The translations under genes were made by a program, and so were the position numbers. A stretch of 40,803 bases of DNA from Rhizobium sp. Q54 (GTDB lineage Bacteria; Pseudomonadota; Alphaproteobacteria; UBA828). The DNA lies in the NCBI GenBank assembly GCA_945892755.1, contig CAMDDO010000021.1, positions 1 to 40,803 of the forward strand, written 5' to 3'. How positions within the stretch are numbered: the stretch's first letter is position 1; each line of letters opens with the position of its first letter. Positions 2,721 to 34,932 of this stretch are shown here, piece by piece. The notes beneath the pieces are model-generated. The model made no database searches. It had not been told where the DNA came from and saw nothing but the letters and a program-made list of their open reading frames with translations.

Positions 2721-2816
2721 GGCGCTCCCCGCGTGGCGGACGATCCGGCCAACCCGGCCGGCAGGACTATATGCCCAAGGAAGCCCGCGCGCGCAACCGG
2801 CGGCGGGAGCGCCGCG

Positions 2817-3302
2817 TTACTTCGCGGCTTCGGCCTGGCGCATGGCGCAGGCCTGGGCGAGCGCGTGCGCGCTTTGATCGCCGATCAGCTGGCCGTCGAA
2901 ATAGACTTTGTTGTCGCGCACCGTGATCCGGCCGACATTGAAGTCGCTGTCGGCCACGCGTTCGGCGCCGGTGCCGGGCGAGGTATCGGTCACCTCGCTC
3001 AGGGGCATGGTCAGGTTGACTGAATATTCGTGGTCGGGCCCGAGGAGCGAAGGCGAACCGCCGTCGAGCTCGGCCGGCGCGACTGGGTTCCCCTCCGCAT
3101 CGACGCCCGGCTGGTAGGCGACGTCGGGCGCCGGCTCGTGAACGGTCAGCGCGTCGCACGGATCGCCGGCCGTGACCGTGCCATCGGGGCTGACCGAGGG
3201 ATCGCCTTCGCTCAGCAGGTCGACCGGCCGGTCATCGGCCAGGCCGACCGTCGGCGCCATCAAGGCGATCCAAACCAGTCCCGCGACGCATGATTGCCAC
3301 AT
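2817..3302 (-). CDS. Exported protein of unknown function
   Basis: The predicted 161-residue protein is not one I recognise. The start ATG at 3302 was chosen because it gives a clear signal peptide, MWQSCVAGLVWIALMAPT, with probable cleavage after GLA at residue 22. The reading frame is open further upstream to 3497, but that part overlaps tag and looks non-coding. No strong ribosome binding site is visible at 3302. The mature part is acidic and Pro/Gly/Asp-rich. It ends in a better-ordered segment around VGRITVRDNKVYFDGQLIGD and a helix (SAHALAQACAMRQAEAA). One cysteine follows at DPCDAL and one near the C-terminus, so a disulfide is possible. The gene lies between tag and proS on the same strand. 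It is probably periplasmic. No function is proposed. Confidence 0.7.
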   Translation of the reverse strand: MWQSCVAGLVWIALMAPTVGLADDRPVDLLSEGDPSVSPDGTVTAGDPCDALTVHEPAPDVAYQPGVDAEGNPVAPAELDGGSPSLLGPDHEYSVNLTMPLSEVTDTSPGTGAERVADSDFNVGRITVRDNKVYFDGQLIGDQSAHALAQACAMRQAEAAK

Positions 3303-3340
3303 CGCCCAAGGGTCGCCGCCGCGGGTTAAGGAAGGCTTAT

Positions 3341-3877
3341 TCAGGCGCGTGTCCAAGGCGGCTTGGCCTTGAGCGTTCGGGCATAGGCCGGGCAATCCGG
3401 CGCGTGGGCGCCCGGCAAATAGCCGGTCGAGACCAGGAATTCGCGCACGATCTCGCCGCCGGTGAAACGAAAGGTCTGTTTCATCAGCTTGGCCCAAGCG
3501 TCGAGCTCGCGCGGGTGATGGGCGTCGAGCCAGGCGGCGAACGAGCCGTGGCTCTCGCGGATCGCCTGGAGGCGCTTGGCGTTCTCGATCGCGGCGTCGA
3601 CCTTGAGCCGGTTGCGGATGATGCCGGCATCGGCCAGCAGGCGCGCGCGCTGCCGCTCGCCATAGCGCGCCACTTTGTCGATCTCGAAGCCGTCATAGGC
3701 GGCGCGAAACGAATCGCGCTTCTTCAGGATGGTGAGCCAGGAGAGCCCGGCCTGGTTGATCTCGAGCACGAGGCGCTCGAACAGGGCGGCGTCATCGCGC
3801 AGCGGAAAGCCATATTCGCGGTCGTGATAGGGCCCGTGAAACGGGTGGCCGGAAGCCGCGGCGCAATAGCTCGTCAT
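3341..3877 (-). CDS. tag: DNA-3-methyladenine glycosylase I
   Basis: The 178-residue base-excision repair enzyme removes N3-methyladenine from alkylated DNA. TAG family features are visible: an N-terminal zinc 'snap' with Cys5 and His18 (MTSYCAAASG and GPYHDREYGFP) completed by His158 and Cys162 (GAHAPDCPAY), and the catalytic Glu39 in LEINQAGLSW. The length matches E. coli Tag (187 residues). The start at 3877 is taken because the family N-terminus begins a few residues before the first zinc cysteine. The frame extends to 3943, but the extra residues are low-complexity and overlap the DUF1467 gene. It sits 4 bases after the DUF1467 stop and upstream of the exported protein. A repair gene here is not part of the usual nuo-proS gene order I know. 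Confidence 0.93.
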   Translation of the reverse strand: MTSYCAAASGHPFHGPYHDREYGFPLRDDAALFERLVLEINQAGLSWLTILKKRDSFRAAYDGFEIDKVARYGERQRARLLADAGIIRNRLKVDAAIENAKRLQAIRESHGSFAAWLDAHHPRELDAWAKLMKQTFRFTGGEIVREFLVSTGYLPGAHAPDCPAYARTLKAKPPWTRA

Positions 3878-22171: not shown

Positions 22172-22248
<77 letters not shown>

Positions 22249-22260
22249 GAATCCGCCCTT

Positions 22261-22286
22261 TCCGCCGCCCGATTCGAGGCGGCGGA
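22261..22286 (-). repeat. Perfect inverted repeat in the tRNA-Asp leader
   Basis: Arms TCCGCCGCC (22261-22269) and GGCGGCGGA (22278-22286) enclose an 8-base loop. If transcription starts about 7 bases after the -10 box at 22296-22301, this 9-bp hairpin would form the 5' end of the tRNA-Asp precursor. It may stabilise the leader or guide processing. That role is inferred. Confidence 0.5.
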
Positions 22287-22295
22287 GAGCGGCCT

Positions 22296-22324
22296 CATGT
22301 ACTGCACCGCACCTTGCGGGTCAA
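22296..22324 (-). promoter_or_regulatory. Sigma-70-type promoter for tRNA-Asp
   Basis: On the minus strand TTGACC (22319-22324) is followed after exactly 17 bases by TACATG (22296-22301). The tRNA 5' end is about 48 bases downstream. The -35 box is near consensus and the -10 is moderate, a pattern common for alphaproteobacterial tRNA genes. Confidence 0.65.
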
Positions 22325-22659
22325 GGAACTTACCCTTGGTTAATATAGAGCAACGGCGCGGTGTCGAAGGTAGCGGTCCGCCGTCGCCCATTGGGGCTGA
22401 GGCACGGCAGGCTTCGCTGCGCTCCACGAGCGAAGGGCGGTGGGCCGGCCAGAGCATCTCCGATCGCTGCGCCACTTGCATTCCTCGACCACGTTAGGGC
22501 AATCGTCCGAACGGGCACGAGTTCTTGGCCATCTTCAACGCCAGGAGTTGTTCGAACAAAGCCACCAACAACTTATTAACGAGCCGAGAATAGACTGCTC
22601 TCGGCCGCATCGGTGAGTTCGCGCAAGCCAGATTTTCAGTTCCGTTGATGGAGGGCTCG
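22325..22659. other. Non-coding interval upstream of the DUF2726 gene
   Basis: About 335 bases without a supportable gene. The base composition is visibly less GC-rich than the flanks in places (for example around 22330-22346 and 22540-22600), and short open frames here look random. No clear promoter for the rightward gene was identified. No direct repeat of either tRNA 3' end was found. Confidence 0.5.
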
Positions 22660-23247
22660 GTGCCCGAACTGGGATTGGAGGACGGGATCCAAGGCGGAGC
22701 GTGGCTGCTAATCCTTGCGCTCGCCATTCTATTAGCCACTCAGGCCAGGCGCCTTTTGCCGCCACGACGACGAGGCCGCTTTCACACTCTTCACCGGCAA
22801 TCGAGAGCCGATCAGGACCGAGCGCCAGACCTCAGCGATATCGGGCGGCAACTGAGCGCGGTAATGGCGGCATCATTCCAAAAGCGGCGCGTGCTTAGCG
22901 CCTCGGAATACCGCGTCTTCAAGATCATTGAAGACGACTTGGCCGCTTTTCGCAGGGGTTACCGCGTCTTTGGGCAGACCAGCCTTGGCGAAATTCTACA
23001 ATCACCCAGCGCAGACGCGTTTCATTCGATTAACAGCAAGCGAGCCGACATCCTTGTGGTCGATCGCGGCGGCTGGCCAATTCTAGCCGTGGAGTATCAA
23101 GGTAGTGGGCATTACCAAGGCACGGCTGCGGCCCGGGACGCGATCAAGAAAGAAGCCCTACGCAAGGCGGGGGTGCGGTATGTCGAGGTTTGCGAGGCCG
23201 ACAGCGACGACCAAATTCGGTCTCGGGTGCGCGAGCAACTGGGCTGA
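22660..23247 (+). CDS. Membrane-anchored DUF2726 domain protein (restriction-endonuclease-like fold suspected)
   Basis: The predicted 195-residue protein has an N-terminal transmembrane helix (about residues 13-30, AWLLILALAILLATQ), a basic stretch (RRLLPPRRRGR) and a C-terminal DUF2726 domain (from RRVLSASEYRVFKIIE to the end). Within the domain, RADILVVDRGGWPILAVEYQG resembles a PD-(D/E)xK-type core with Asp130, Glu145 and Gln147 in place of Lys. RDAIKKEALRKAGVRYVEV is the typical family end. The GTG start at 22660 is preferred because GGAGG lies about 5 bases upstream. The ATG at 22648 is the alternative. It is the only plus-strand gene among leftward genes here and lies between two tRNA genes. 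Nuclease activity is an inference from the fold, not shown. Confidence 0.82.
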   Translation: MPELGLEDGIQGGAWLLILALAILLATQARRLLPPRRRGRFHTLHRQSRADQDRAPDLSDIGRQLSAVMAASFQKRRVLSASEYRVFKIIEDDLAAFRRGYRVFGQTSLGEILQSPSADAFHSINSKRADILVVDRGGWPILAVEYQGSGHYQGTAAARDAIKKEALRKAGVRYVEVCEADSDDQIRSRVREQLG

Positions 23248-23367
23248 CCCTGCTTCCAATCCCTACCGCCAAAGCACAATCCGCGGATGACGTATGCGTA
23301 CCACACGATAGTGGCTCCAGCCCGTCTACGCTCCTAACCGAGCTACGGGGGATACTCCTACGCCTAA

Positions 23368-23423
23368 TCGCCTTCGGGTGTCATGCCCTAGGGTGGTGGC
23401 CTGCTACCCAAAGCCGAAGGCGA
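23368..23423 (-). repeat. 10-bp perfect inverted repeat immediately 3' of tRNA-Val
   Basis: TCGCCTTCGG (23368-23377) and CCGAAGGCGA (23414-23423) are perfect complements separated by 36 bases that contain smaller stems, including the palindrome CCCTAGGG. The element begins 4 bases beyond the CCA end of tRNA-Val. It could terminate or help process the tRNA transcript, or be the remnant of an inserted element. No run of T follows, so it is not a standard intrinsic terminator. Confidence 0.5.
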
Positions 23424-23427
23424 AGCG

Positions 23428-23503
23428 TGGTGGGCGATGACGGACTCGAACCGCCGACATTCTCGGTGTAAACGAGACGCTCTACCAACTGAGCTAATCG
23501 CCC
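23428..23503 (-). tRNA. tRNA-Val(TAC)
   Basis: The complete cloverleaf has acceptor GGGCGAT/ATCGCCC and D arm GCTC/GAGC. The anticodon stem TCTCG/CGAGA encloses the loop TTTACAC (anticodon TAC). The T arm is GGCGG/CCGTC with the loop TTCGAGT. The discriminator is A and CCA is encoded at 23428-23430. Length is 76 bases with CCA. No strong promoter of its own was seen. A TAGGAT -10-like box lies upstream at about 23540, just after the hupB terminator. Confidence 0.97.
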
Positions 23504-27930: not shown

Positions 27931-28053
27931 GTCCGCACCGTCACTACCTCAGACCGAAGATCGTCTCGACCGGCGCCGCCGGCTCGGTCGGGCCGCAAGG
28001 CCCGGAAACACCTTCGAATCTTGTCACAGTTGAAAAGCGTGGCATCCACTTTC

Positions 28054-28129
28054 GTTGGTGTCTAGCCAAATCTCCTGTCCGGAGGGTTTGACTTGATCCC
28101 GATTCAACCCTAGCAGGCGTCACACCAAC
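28054..28129 (-). promoter_or_regulatory. Nested inverted repeats in the clpP-clpX gap (possible structured leader)
   Basis: Outer arms GTTGGTGT (28054-28061) and ACACCAAC (28122-28129) enclose a second near-perfect stem, AGGGTT[T]GA (28083-28091) with TTCAACCCT (28103-28111), and a small CTCC/GGAG hairpin (28072-28084) that competes with it. The whole 76-base element lies in the 226-base gap and would be in the transcript upstream of clpX. It is AT-richer than its surroundings. A role in clpX expression is inferred only. Confidence 0.4.
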
Positions 28130-28156
28130 AAAACCTTACCCATTCATAGTTAACAA

Positions 28157-28801
28157 TTATTTCGGCTTTTTCTCAGCCCCCTCATCGACAGGGGCGCGCT
28201 TGAAGATGACTTCGTCGACCAGGCCGAAAGCCTTGGAATCCTCGGGCGTCATGAACTTGTCGCGCTCCAGACTGTCTTCGATCACGGCCATCGGCTGTTT
28301 GGTGTGGTGAACGTAGATTTCGTTCAGCCGCTTGCGCAGCGACAAGATTTCGCGGGCATGTATTTCGATGTCGGTCGCCTGGCCTTGGAAGCCGCCCGAA
28401 GGCTGATGCAGCATGATGCGCGCATTGGGCAGCGAGAAGCGCTGGCCGGCCGCTCCGGCGCAAAGCAGCAAGGATCCCATGGACGCCGCCTGACCGATCA
28501 CCAGCGTCGCGACCGCGGGGCGGATGTACTGCATCGTGTCGTAAATCGCGAGCCCGGCCGTCACCAAGCCACCCGGCGAGTTGATATAAACCGAGATGTC
28601 CTTGGTCGGATTCTCCGATTCGAGGAACAGGAACTGCGCCGCGATCAGGCTCGCCATTTCATCATGAATCGGCCCGGTGATGAAAATGATGCGCTCCTTG
28701 AGCAGCCGCGAGTAGATGTCGTAGGCGCGCTCGCCGCGGTTGGTCTGCTCGACGACCATGGGGACCAAGACGTTGCCATAGGTTTCGATGATGTCCGCCA
28801 A
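28157..28801 (-). CDS. clpP: ClpP, proteolytic subunit of Clp protease
   Basis: The 214-residue serine protease subunit forms the tetradecameric chamber used by ClpX. The catalytic triad is Ser107 ([10 protein letters not shown]), His132 (RIMLHQPSG) and Asp181 (SLERDKFM). The start is a TTG at 28801: AGGAG lies 8 bases upstream, and the residues it adds ([15 protein letters not shown]) match the family N-terminus, whereas the first in-frame ATG would remove them. It lies 70 bases downstream of tig, in the standard tig-clpP-clpX-lon order. Confidence 0.96.
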
Positions 28802-33597: not shown

Positions 33598-34932
33598 ATG
33601 ACTAGCGCCCGCGGCGTAACGCCTTCGACCTGTCCGAGTGCCGCCGAAACCGCCCAAGCGGTGCGCGCCGGCACGCTGACCGCCCGCGCGGCGACCGAAG
33701 CGGCGCTCGCGCGGATCGCGGCCCATGAGGCCGAGGTGCTCGCCTTCGAATATCTCGATGCCAAGTTGGCGCTGGCCTCGGCCGACGCGCTCGACGCGCA
33801 AATGCCGAAGGGTCCGCTCGCCGGCGTGCCGATCGCGGTCAAGGACATTATCGACACCGCCGACATGCCGACGCGCAATGGCTGCGCCCATGAGTTCGCA
33901 CGCCAACCGAGCGCGGACGCGACCGTCGTCAAGCGTCTGAGGCGGGCCGGTGCCCTGGTACTCGGCAAGACCACGACCACCGAGTGCGCCTATTACCACC
34001 CGACCAAGACACGCAACCCGCACGACCTCGCGCGCACGCCCGGCGGCTCATCGAGCGGCTCGGCGGCGGCCCTTGGCTCGGGCATGGTGCCGATCGCGCT
34101 CGGCACGCAGACCGCCGGCTCGATCATCCGCCCGGCCGCGTTCTGCGGCGTCTGGGGCATGAAGCCGAGCTTTGGCCTGGTGCCGCGCACCGGCGTGCTC
34201 ACGCTCGGCCATTCGATCGACCATGTCGGCACGCTGGCCGGGCGCATCGAGGATCTGGCGCGCACGATCGACCTGATGGCGGGCGATGATGGTCTCGACC
34301 CGGCAAGCTTCGGCGCGCGCCCGAGCCGGCTCGAGCACGCCCTCACCATGAAGCTCGACCGGCCGCGGCTCGGCTTCGCGCGGAGTTTCGCCTGGCCGGA
34401 GATGGAGCCGGGCGCGGCCGCGCGCTTCGAGGCACTGGCAAAGCGATTGGGCGCGGTCGAGCTCGACCTGGGCGCGGACTTCGCCGAGGTCATGGCACCA
34501 CATCGCTGCATCATGGCGCGCGAGATGGCGCACCATCTCTGGCCGAAATATTTGGCGGGCGGCGAGCGCCTTTCCCAGCCGCTGCGCGCGCTGCTGATCG
34601 AGGGTCGCGGCATCGGCGCCGAGCGATACTTCGAAGCGCTCGACCAAATCGCCCGTCTCAAGGCGATCGCCAACCGGCTGCTGAGCCCATTCGATGGCGT
34701 GATCACACCGGCCGCGCCCGGCGAAGCGCCGCTCGGCCTCGGCTTCACGGGCAGTCGCGCCTTTTGCTTCCTGTGGACCGTGCTCGGCGTGCCGGCGGTC
34801 AATGTGCCCGGCCTGCGCGGTGATGCCGGCCTGCCGCTCGGCGTTCAGGTCGTCGGCGCGTTCGGCACCGACGCCCAGACGCTGCGCGCGGCGGCCTGGG
34901 TCGGCCGCGAGCTTCAGGCGGCCCCGCCTTGA
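33598..34932 (+). CDS. Amidase signature family hydrolase
   Basis: The 444-residue protein belongs to the amidase signature family, which hydrolyses carbon-nitrogen amide bonds. The Ser-cis-Ser-Lys triad is present: Lys82 in PIAVKDIIDTADM, the serine-rich loop GGSSSGSAAA with the cis-Ser (151 or 152) and nucleophile Ser175 in GTQTAGSIIRPA. The latter replaces the more usual TGGS. The C-terminal LPLGVQVVGAFGTD is family-typical. The size and divergence from GatA make a role in Gln-tRNA formation unlikely. The substrate is unknown. It starts a rightward group with the FIST and sirtuin genes, 49 bases before the former. Confidence 0.9.
   Translation: MTSARGVTPSTCPSAAETAQAVRAGTLTARAATEAALARIAAHEAEVLAFEYLDAKLALASADALDAQMPKGPLAGVPIAVKDIIDTADMPTRNGCAHEFARQPSADATVVKRLRRAGALVLGKTTTTECAYYHPTKTRNPHDLARTPGGSSSGSAAALGSGMVPIALGTQTAGSIIRPAAFCGVWGMKPSFGLVPRTGVLTLGHSIDHVGTLAGRIEDLARTIDLMAGDDGLDPASFGARPSRLEHALTMKLDRPRLGFARSFAWPEMEPGAAARFEALAKRLGAVELDLGADFAEVMAPHRCIMAREMAHHLWPKYLAGGERLSQPLRALLIEGRGIGAERYFEALDQIARLKAIANRLLSPFDGVITPAAPGEAPLGLGFTGSRAFCFLWTVLGVPAVNVPGLRGDAGLPLGVQVVGAFGTDAQTLRAAAWVGRELQAAPP

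What the first reader, a model, noticed from the sequence alone, without database searches (positions are those of the whole stretch)
22249..23427. Foreign-looking segment with a membrane-anchored DUF2726 protein between two tRNA genes
The only plus-strand gene among leftward genes sits between tRNA-Asp and tRNA-Val in sequence visibly lower in GC, with loose spacing on both sides. It lies on the 3' side of tRNA-Val, the side where integrating elements normally insert. The protein joins a transmembrane helix to a DUF2726 domain with a PD-(D/E)xK-like core in which Gln replaces Lys. It could be a single-gene cargo, possibly a defence or DNA-processing factor. No integrase or att repeat is left.
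Basis: partly seen in the sequence, partly recalled or inferred. Interest (0 to 1): 0.5.

Follow-up and report, generated by a model that had tools for sequence, protein, structure and literature searches.

The report
Dead tRNA-tail element beside membrane nuclease
The gap between two tRNA genes holds the wreck of a small, apparently undescribed kind of mobile element that sits on the 3' end of tRNA genes in many bacteria and carries its own tiny nuclease gene, next to a separately acquired gene for a membrane-anchored nuclease-like protein.

Summary
It is accessory: missing from this interval in the 9 relatives where both tRNAs could be read. "No att repeat or integrase left" missed the real find. 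Directly on the CCA of tRNA-Val lies a ~120-nt palindromic element followed by the first nine codons of a GIY-YIG nuclease gene. Sister genome G001 has the element intact, with the whole nuclease gene and other cargo; eight family members have a 92-182 bp gap. The window holds one dead copy of a widespread family: of 80 close nuclease relatives in named genomes, 64 lie within 600 nt behind a tRNA, as do 25 of 30 loci from a class-wide sample. In Bradyrhizobium, palindrome type and nuclease type switch together at one tRNA-Ala site (13 and 13, no mixtures), with about 12 switches on the host tree. I read it as a selfish tRNA-tail element spread by its nuclease. Association and turnover are shown; the copying mechanism and both nuclease activities are inferred. 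Nine paper searches on the element showed no description of it.

The parts
23428..23503 (-). tRNA-Val (TAC); its genome-encoded CCA end (23430-23428) forms the outer arm of the palindrome
   Evidence: ARAGORN; Rfam
23308..23427 (-). tRNA-tail palindromic element, decayed copy; covariance model R1 matches 23318-23430
   Evidence: 86% identity to the G001 copy L055:567-684, E 8.9e-33; 82-83% over about 100 nt to copies L174, L180, L189 of other alphaproteobacteria, E down to 2e-22; R1 36.2 bits against 87.4 for G001; fold z -1.96 against -7.70
23280..23306 (-). first nine codons of a GIY-YIG nuclease ORF (VWYAYVIRG), where the intact gene starts in G001; the rest is not recognisable
   Evidence: reading frame; G001 ORF L055:685-918, Pfam GIY-YIG E 2.2e-9; the short window ORF itself has no Pfam match even at E 10
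22648..23247 (+). DUF2726 gene, 199 aa (alternative TTG start at 22645); convergent with the nuclease remnant
22684..22740 (+). predicted N-terminal membrane helix (residues 13-31)
   Evidence: hydropathy; helix 14-35 in the AlphaFold2 model, low confidence there
22885..23226 (+). DUF2726 domain with nuclease-type fold (residues 80-193), with E87, D134, E149, H155, D164 invariant in 11 aligned sequences
   Evidence: Pfam; alignment A3; model pLDDT 70-92 per ten-residue block except 121-130 (53) and 151-160 (57); VIA-align
22374..22418 (-). possible second element fragment resembling Bradyrhizobium GCC-type copies; weak
   Evidence: blastn E 0.002, 81% over 43 nt; no unusual fold of 22370-22480, z +0.68
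22262..22348 (-). tRNA-Asp upstream region kept in sister genomes G001 and, in part, G002; marks the edge of the insertion
   Evidence: E 2.5e-15 with G001, 6.7e-10 with G002
22172..22248 (-). tRNA-Asp (GTC)

Best explanation
The tRNA-Val to tRNA-Asp gap is an insertion site used by a family of short selfish elements, here called tRNA-tail elements. A complete copy is usually about 320-480 nt (longest seen about 690). It starts at the 3' end of a tRNA gene with hairpins whose outer arm includes the tRNA's own 3' end (CCA where the gene encodes it), and it ends with a gene for a GIY-YIG nuclease of about 77-82 aa. Proposed mechanism: the nuclease cuts at or next to the 3' end of element-free or differently occupied tRNA genes, and repair copies in the palindrome plus nuclease gene while leaving a complete tRNA. 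Palindromes without the gene are non-autonomous copies or relics. In the window the copy on tRNA-Val is dead: its hairpins have decayed and the nuclease gene is lost after about nine codons. A DUF2726 gene for a membrane-anchored PD-(D/E)xK-type protein then took the space, probably arriving independently. Shown: position, structure, linkage of palindrome and nuclease type, rapid turnover at one site. Inferred: the cutting and copying steps, the order of events in the window, and nuclease activity of either protein.
For: Site occupancy: gap 92-182 bp in 8 family genomes, 1490 bp with a GIY-YIG ORF plus another ORF in G001, 1179 bp in the window. Position: a tRNA within 600 nt upstream on the same strand for 64 of 80 nuclease relatives in genome contigs; 7 of the other 16 have 300 nt or less of upstream DNA and one lies behind a tmRNA (L243). 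Class-wide sample: 25 of 30 loci (30 of the 51 matches became loci). Covariance model on six genomes: 25 of 30 loci abut a tRNA 3' end, 20 of 25 if the five loci used to build the model are left out. Structure: the G001 copy folds at -79.6 kcal/mol, z -7.70; 6 of 26 consensus pairs show changes on both sides; after an anchor motif, the complement of the three bases that follow CCA occurs in 83 of 110 distinct copies, against 54 of 1100 trials with the bases of other types. Unit: at a Bradyrhizobium tRNA-Ala-GGC site 13 of 13 CGC-type palindromes with a nuclease carry clade B and 13 of 13 GCC-type carry clade A. Turnover: the A/B label changes 12 times on the host upstream-DNA tree, at least 9 forced by well-supported branches. 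Palindrome type follows the nuclease tree (12 changes against 51.7 shuffled) while tRNA type changes 37 times against 62.7.
Against: No cleavage, homing or excision was observed. Selection: the alignments used to find nuclease relatives (A1, A2) were built mostly or wholly from tRNA-linked members, and the covariance model from tRNA-abutting copies starting with CCA, so the figures hold for this subfamily, not for GIY-YIG genes at large. Nine of the 80 loci have more than 300 nt upstream but no tRNA called; one is the tmRNA case and eight stay unexplained, though several show similar palindromes (by eye). Many copies have no nuclease gene: in G035 one nuclease of this subfamily against at least 14 palindromes. 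Of the 30 model loci one abuts RNase P RNA and one lies at neither. The covariation energy term of the consensus fold is only -0.04, and the TCC type has its partner in just 3 of 16 copies. The window's nuclease remnant is nine codons long. The nuclease tree has few columns and 70 of 118 inner branches are weakly supported. No clean element-free site was seen at the Bradyrhizobium tRNA: the one site without an element begins, by eye, with an integrase-like gene.
Confidence: 0.7

Rival explanations
1. The palindromes are ordinary tRNA terminators or 3'-processing signals of the host, and the GIY-YIG genes are neighbours that happen to sit behind them.
For: Strong hairpins directly behind tRNAs could end transcription; many copies lack the nuclease gene.
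Against: Only 3 of 39 tRNAs in G000 and at least 14 of 45 in G035 carry them (by eye; two more in G000 share only the first bases). Palindrome type follows the nuclease clade and is exchanged at one site about 12 times within a genus.
Confidence: 0.12
2. One reading: a single-gene genomic island put behind tRNA-Val by an integrase that has since been lost.
For: Location on the 3' side of tRNA-Val; lower GC and third-position GC; gap short in relatives.
Against: No ORF in the interval other than DUF2726 is longer than 118 aa. The only direct repeat that involves the tRNAs is their own mutual similarity, and the tRNA-Val 3' end has no second copy at 3 or fewer mismatches near the interval. None of 7 other DUF2726 loci has a tRNA within about 1.5 kb.
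Confidence: 0.08
3. The DUF2726 gene is true cargo of the tRNA-tail element and moved in with it, as the extra ORF in G001 may have.
For: Both sister genomes carry an extra ORF between element and tRNA-Asp; a weak element-like fragment lies on the other side of the gene.
Against: The two ORFs are unrelated by family search and stand on opposite strands. None of 7 other DUF2726 loci has a tRNA nearby. In many Bradyrhizobium copies the shared flank resumes soon after the nuclease stop codon (by eye), so cargo is not the rule.
Confidence: 0.15
4. The DUF2726 protein is an active single-gene defence or DNA-uptake nuclease held at the membrane. (Concerns function; compatible with the best explanation.)
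For: Fold match to I-Bth0305I, Vsr and restriction enzymes. DUF2726 is described as a restriction-fold DNase fused to an AbiJ-type domain (PMC3710099, passages read). Relatives below 60% identity occur in 127 plasmid records, 87 of them predicted conjugative, and on one phage-like contig between apparent portal and capsid genes (genes named by eye).
Against: No PADLOC match; no match in the phage records; no shared partner gene in the four plasmid regions read.
Confidence: 0.35

Closest known systems
SegB of phage T4, free-standing GIY-YIG homing endonuclease at tRNA genes
   Same: GIY-YIG nuclease gene inserted among tRNA genes and inherited at high frequency in mixed infections (PMC2988022, passages read)
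   Different: SegB lies between tRNA-Arg and tRNA-Ile of a phage; no repeat built on a tRNA CCA end is described in the passages read. The present family sits on many tRNA types in bacterial chromosomes and is a minimal domain.
REPtrons: REP palindromes with RAYT transposases
   Same: short imperfect palindromes, alone or beside a dedicated DNA-acting enzyme, with repeat-specific pairs (PMC3733652, passages read)
   Different: The enzyme here is GIY-YIG, not a tyrosine transposase, and the copies sit on tRNA 3' ends. In that paper's main text GIY-YIG does not occur and tRNA occurs only for synthetase and pseudouridine synthase genes.
Integrative elements that enter tRNA 3' ends by tyrosine recombinases (recalled)
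   Same: same target, intact tRNA after insertion
   Different: no integrase and no direct repeat of the tRNA end; element of a few hundred nt
UPF0213 small GIY-YIG proteins (PDB 1zg2, BH0048)
   Same: closest solved sequence relative of the nuclease profile A2, E 6.8e-12
   Different: nothing in my calls ties UPF0213 itself to tRNA genes
I-Bth0305I / Vsr nuclease fold
   Same: closest fold to the DUF2726 domain: Z 10.0 over 89 residues (2.6 A) and 7.7 over 90 (2.3 A)
   Different: 18-20% identity; the window protein has a predicted membrane helix and the E-x-Q motif

Membership tests
Pfam DUF2726 (PF10881) | profile score above the curated cut-off over the domain | tested here: met
   63.3 bits against 24.7, profile positions 2-122 of 126
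PD-(D/E)xK / Vsr-like nuclease fold | structural core shared with Vsr or I-Bth0305I | tested here: met
   VIA-align Z 10.0 (3r3p_A) and 7.7 (1vsr). Caveats: Foldseek alone gave no match at E 0.001; the model rests on two sequences; rank 2 (Z 8.2) is a mitoribosomal protein and the tool warns that Z under 8 may mean only a common arrangement
PD-(D/E)xK / Vsr-like nuclease fold | canonical D...E-x-K catalytic triad | tested here: not met
   D134 and E149 invariant, third position Q or H. Invariant E87, D134, H155, D164 would suit the EDxHD pattern, which is recalled only (paper not held)
PD-(D/E)xK / Vsr-like nuclease fold | metal-dependent nuclease activity | not testable with these tools
   needs the purified domain
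GIY-YIG nuclease | GIY-YIG domain in the element's intact ORF (G001) | tested here: met
   E 2.2e-9, 37.9 bits against 22.6
GIY-YIG nuclease | domain present in the window itself | tested here: not met
   only nine codons left, no Pfam match
Free-standing homing endonuclease | cuts element-free alleles and is copied into them | not testable with these tools
   only rapid replacement at one site was seen
REPtron (REP + RAYT) | tyrosine (Y1) transposase beside the palindrome | tested here: not met
   the ORF beside the palindrome in G001 is GIY-YIG
Integrase-type genomic island at a tRNA | integrase gene and direct repeat of the tRNA end | tested here: not met
   no other ORF over 118 aa in the interval; no second copy of the tRNA-Val end near it
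Known Rfam RNA family | element matches a curated family | tested here: not met
   in the window only the three tRNAs reach the gathering score; in six related loci at E up to 1, nothing covers the element except a sub-threshold sX4 hit (33.5 bits against 70) on a tRNA-Ser that runs about 30 nt into one copy

The most novel reading that the evidence does not exclude
A previously undescribed class of mobile element: a palindrome that builds on the 3' end of mature-RNA genes (mostly tRNAs; single cases at tmRNA and RNase P RNA) together with a matching minimal GIY-YIG nuclease that spreads it among tRNA genes and species, a nuclease-driven counterpart of REP/RAYT with the tRNA 3' end as a near-universal safe harbour, found from Alphaproteobacteria to Bacteroidota, Ignavibacteria, Verrucomicrobiota and candidate-phyla bacteria.
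Probability: 0.6. Interest if true: 0.85.

Novelty: new variant of a known kind. Interest (0 to 1): 0.7.

Why it matters
tRNA 3' ends are the classic landing sites of large mobile elements that bring an integrase (recalled knowledge). Here a few hundred bases with a nuclease gene of about 77 codons appear to use the same site in several phyla, and to replace one another within a genus so often that their type shows no host-tree signal. If the nuclease reads the junction of tRNA end and palindrome, it would be a very small enzyme with a near-universal chromosomal target, and it would explain a set of otherwise orphan GIY-YIG genes. It also shows that 'empty' tRNA neighbourhoods can hide element wrecks.

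Tried and rejected
Integrase island with att repeat: my first repeat search left out the tRNAs, so I repeated it with both tRNAs inside and searched the tRNA-Val end on its own; no repeat of the tRNA-Val end lies near the interval (one 3-mismatch match at 34277-34296). Vertical, ordinary gene: a match in 4 of 60 genomes including this one (2 of the other 3 are of the same family) and in 6 of 385 class genomes at E 1e-8, again including this one. Defence annotation: no PADLOC hit. Phage cargo: no phage record matched; a first viral-contig scan found no relative, a second with alignment A3 found one contig. Element or its nuclease on plasmids or phages: no match for the DNA on plasmids, none for the nuclease protein on plasmids or phages. 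The six-base partner test allowing one mismatch was useless because shuffles pass 61% of the time; the exact test in the same call gave 29 of 51 and 8 of 25 against 6.1% of shuffles; the anchored test followed. In one search, 121 copies were reduced to 110 distinct ones, and copies from G000 and G035 had been picked by a start motif. The one-sequence AlphaFold2 model was poor (mean pLDDT 48.3); the two-sequence model is better (65.7) but thin. A profile of A3 found no real PDB relative (best E 0.7). NCBIfam gave no name for the DUF2726 protein and only a match below cut-off for the nuclease (19.1 bits against 56.05). In VIA-align, families that did not appear are not excluded.

Looser control: of 18 further loci matching the G001 nuclease in 40 genomes (L082-L099), a tRNA lies just upstream on the same strand for 3 (L083, L086, L092); 13 have no tRNA, L082 lies near a contig end, and in L084 the only tRNA is on the other strand. 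The 13 match weakly (E 3.5e-7 or worse), but so does L086, and I sorted these after looking.

Full report
What is at the coordinates. The interval 22249-23427 lies between tRNA-Asp and tRNA-Val, both on the minus strand. The ORF 22648-23247 on the plus strand encodes 199 residues that match DUF2726 (E 2.4e-17). A hydrophobic stretch (residues 13-31) precedes the domain. GC of the interval is 0.605 against 0.652 for the window; 2.9% of windows of that size are as low. Third-position GC of the ORF is 0.65, against 0.75-0.88 in the four nearest leftward genes (families by Pfam).

The site is variable. I located nuoA and the HU gene in relatives, fetched the intervals and called tRNAs. In 8 family genomes (G005-G012) the tRNA-Val to tRNA-Asp gap is 92-182 bp; in sister genome G001 it is 1490 bp; in the window 1179 bp. 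In G002, of the same genus, the contig starts 154 nt before tRNA-Asp, so it cannot be scored; G003 is split over two contigs and in G004 only tRNA-Val was seen. The G001 interval carries a 77-aa GIY-YIG ORF and a second ORF without a confident family; G001 as a whole has no DUF2726 match to the window protein (the assembly is about 67% complete). The G001 contig has the length of, and a 100% match in, record SHWC01000003.1, a Lake Baikal deep-water alphaproteobacterial MAG.

A shared element on tRNA-Val. Window and G001 are alike through tRNA-Val and about 120 nt beyond it, then diverge. In G001 this stretch folds into strong hairpins (-79.6 kcal/mol, z -7.70, 0 of 200 shuffles as low) and leads straight into the GIY-YIG ORF. 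In the window the fold is weak (z -1.96), the covariance model score is 36.2 bits against 87.4, and the ORF is recognisable only as VWYAYVIRG, ending about 33 nt from the stop codon of the convergent DUF2726 gene. I read this as a dead copy.

The element family. The G001 element searched against 40 genomes gave 10 matches in four genomes, each next to a tRNA 3' end (G000 and G001). I then looked at the tRNAs found in G000 (39) and G035 (45): by eye 3 and at least 14 carry such a palindrome on the CCA end. In G000 the two copies other than the window's, on tRNA-Gln and tRNA-Leu, are each followed by a GIY-YIG ORF without a stop inside.

The nuclease follows the tRNAs. A scan of genome contigs with alignment A1 (five sequences, four of them tRNA-linked) gave 393 confirmed relatives, of which the tool kept the best 80. 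Of these 80, 64 have a tRNA within 600 nt upstream on the same strand, 42 of the 64 being tRNA-Ser. Of the 16 others, 7 have 300 nt or less of upstream sequence; of the 9 with more, one lies behind a tmRNA and 8 stay unexplained, although several carry similar palindromes by eye. By record title the tRNA-linked hosts include Alphaproteobacteria, Bacteroidota, Ignavibacteria, Verrucomicrobia and candidate phyla. With alignment A2 (16 sequences, all tRNA-linked), 45 of 385 genomes of the class have a match at E 1e-12; 51 matches were listed, 30 became loci, and 25 of those lie behind a tRNA; one of the other five is at a contig end. The two sets share a few loci, judged by eye. These figures describe this subfamily only; see the looser control under Tried and rejected.

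Where the palindromes sit. A covariance model from 14 copies, all on tRNA ends and starting with CCA, was run on six genomes chosen because they carry the element or nuclease; 38 matches were listed and 30 became loci. Of the 30, 25 abut a tRNA 3' end, one match begins 12 nt behind one, two are further copies 70 and 88 nt behind such tRNAs, one abuts RNase P RNA, and one (L353) is at neither. Five of the 25 were among the 14 training copies. Of the 8 matches without a locus, six are the opposite strand of listed sites and two are one further copy beside a listed one (coordinates).

Palindrome and nuclease move as a unit. At one tRNA-Ala-GGC site, 60 genomes of one genus were searched and the best 30 were given as loci; the genus is taken as Bradyrhizobium from 81-92% identity of G379 to named loci. 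Of the 30, 13 have a GCC-type palindrome with nuclease clade A, 13 a CGC-type with clade B, 3 a GCC-type start without nuclease and 1 neither. On a tree of 1500 nt of host DNA upstream, the A/B label changes 12 times, at least 9 forced by well-supported branches, no fewer than for shuffled labels (mean 10). Across 125 nuclease sequences, palindrome type follows the nuclease tree (97 rows labelled; 12 changes against 51.7 shuffled), while tRNA type changes 37 times against 62.7. That tree has only 81 columns and most inner branches are weak.

The DUF2726 gene. Close relatives are scarce: 4 of 60 genomes and 6 of 385 class genomes, this one included in both. None of 7 other loci checked has a tRNA within about 1.5 kb. 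127 plasmid records match at E 1e-5, each below 60% identity, 87 predicted conjugative. The four plasmid regions read show different neighbours. One phage-like contig carries a relative between apparent portal and capsid genes (genes named by eye). E87, D134, E149, H155 and D164 are invariant in 11 sequences and E-x-Q is the rule. The two-sequence AlphaFold2 model has mean pLDDT 65.7, 70-92 per block over most of residues 81-199. Foldseek gave no match at E 0.001, with BstEII first at 2.9e-3; VIA-align ranks I-Bth0305I first at Z 10.0 (89 residues, 2.6 A), a mitoribosomal protein second at 8.2 and Vsr fifth at 7.7. The tool's note says that Z under 8 may mean only a common arrangement, so the I-Bth0305I match carries the weight.

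How it most likely works. Shown: anchoring on tRNA 3' ends, conserved hairpins, linkage of palindrome and nuclease, rapid replacement at one site. Inferred: that the nuclease cuts tRNA 3' ends and that repair copies the element in. In the window the element is dead; the DUF2726 gene probably came separately. Whether either protein is an active nuclease is untested here.

Known or new. Ten searches of the held paper library were run: nine on the element and one on DUF2726; one search did not run. In their listings I saw no description of this element. I read passages of PMC2988022, PMC1564403, PMC3710099 and PMC3733652, no whole paper. Subscription papers and preprints are largely not held, so absence from print is not established. 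No Rfam family covers the element. I file it as a new variant of a known kind, free-standing selfish nuclease elements, because the copying mechanism is not shown; the bolder reading is given as the novel case.

Noticed in passing
L347 (G035:C1:2048224-2048314): A copy of the palindrome abuts the 3' end of RNase P RNA rather than a tRNA; by eye its arms read GCCTCCC and GGGAGGC instead of the usual CCACCC and GGGTGG.
   Followed up: partly
L243, nuclease match 3001-3231: A GIY-YIG gene with palindromes lies behind a tmRNA gene (2465-2864).
   Followed up: partly
L353 (G035:C1:3637072-3637146): A model match at neither a tRNA nor RNase P end; by eye its first hairpin seems to use the 3' end of an upstream coding gene as one arm.
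   Followed up: no
L055:1075-1857 (G001): Second ORF of the sister genome's interval, with a lipoprotein-like start by eye; no confident Pfam or NCBIfam family.
   Followed up: no
L125 and L146 (G000), L200, L260: A repeat like TGTCCGGCCCGGAGACATGGGTAACGG recurs near tRNA genes in G000, G002 and Bradyrhizobium jicamae; it may be the end of an insertion sequence (by eye).
   Followed up: no
L340 (G167): The tRNA-Val/tRNA-Asp pair of a genome of another family also has an element behind tRNA-Val.
   Followed up: no
L325 (IMGVR_UViG_3300003965_000004), 2785-3465: A DUF2726 relative sits between apparent phage head genes, like an accessory gene of a prophage.
   Followed up: no
window 28001-28500: Lowest-GC 500-nt block in the profile of the window (0.562), not examined.
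   Followed up: no
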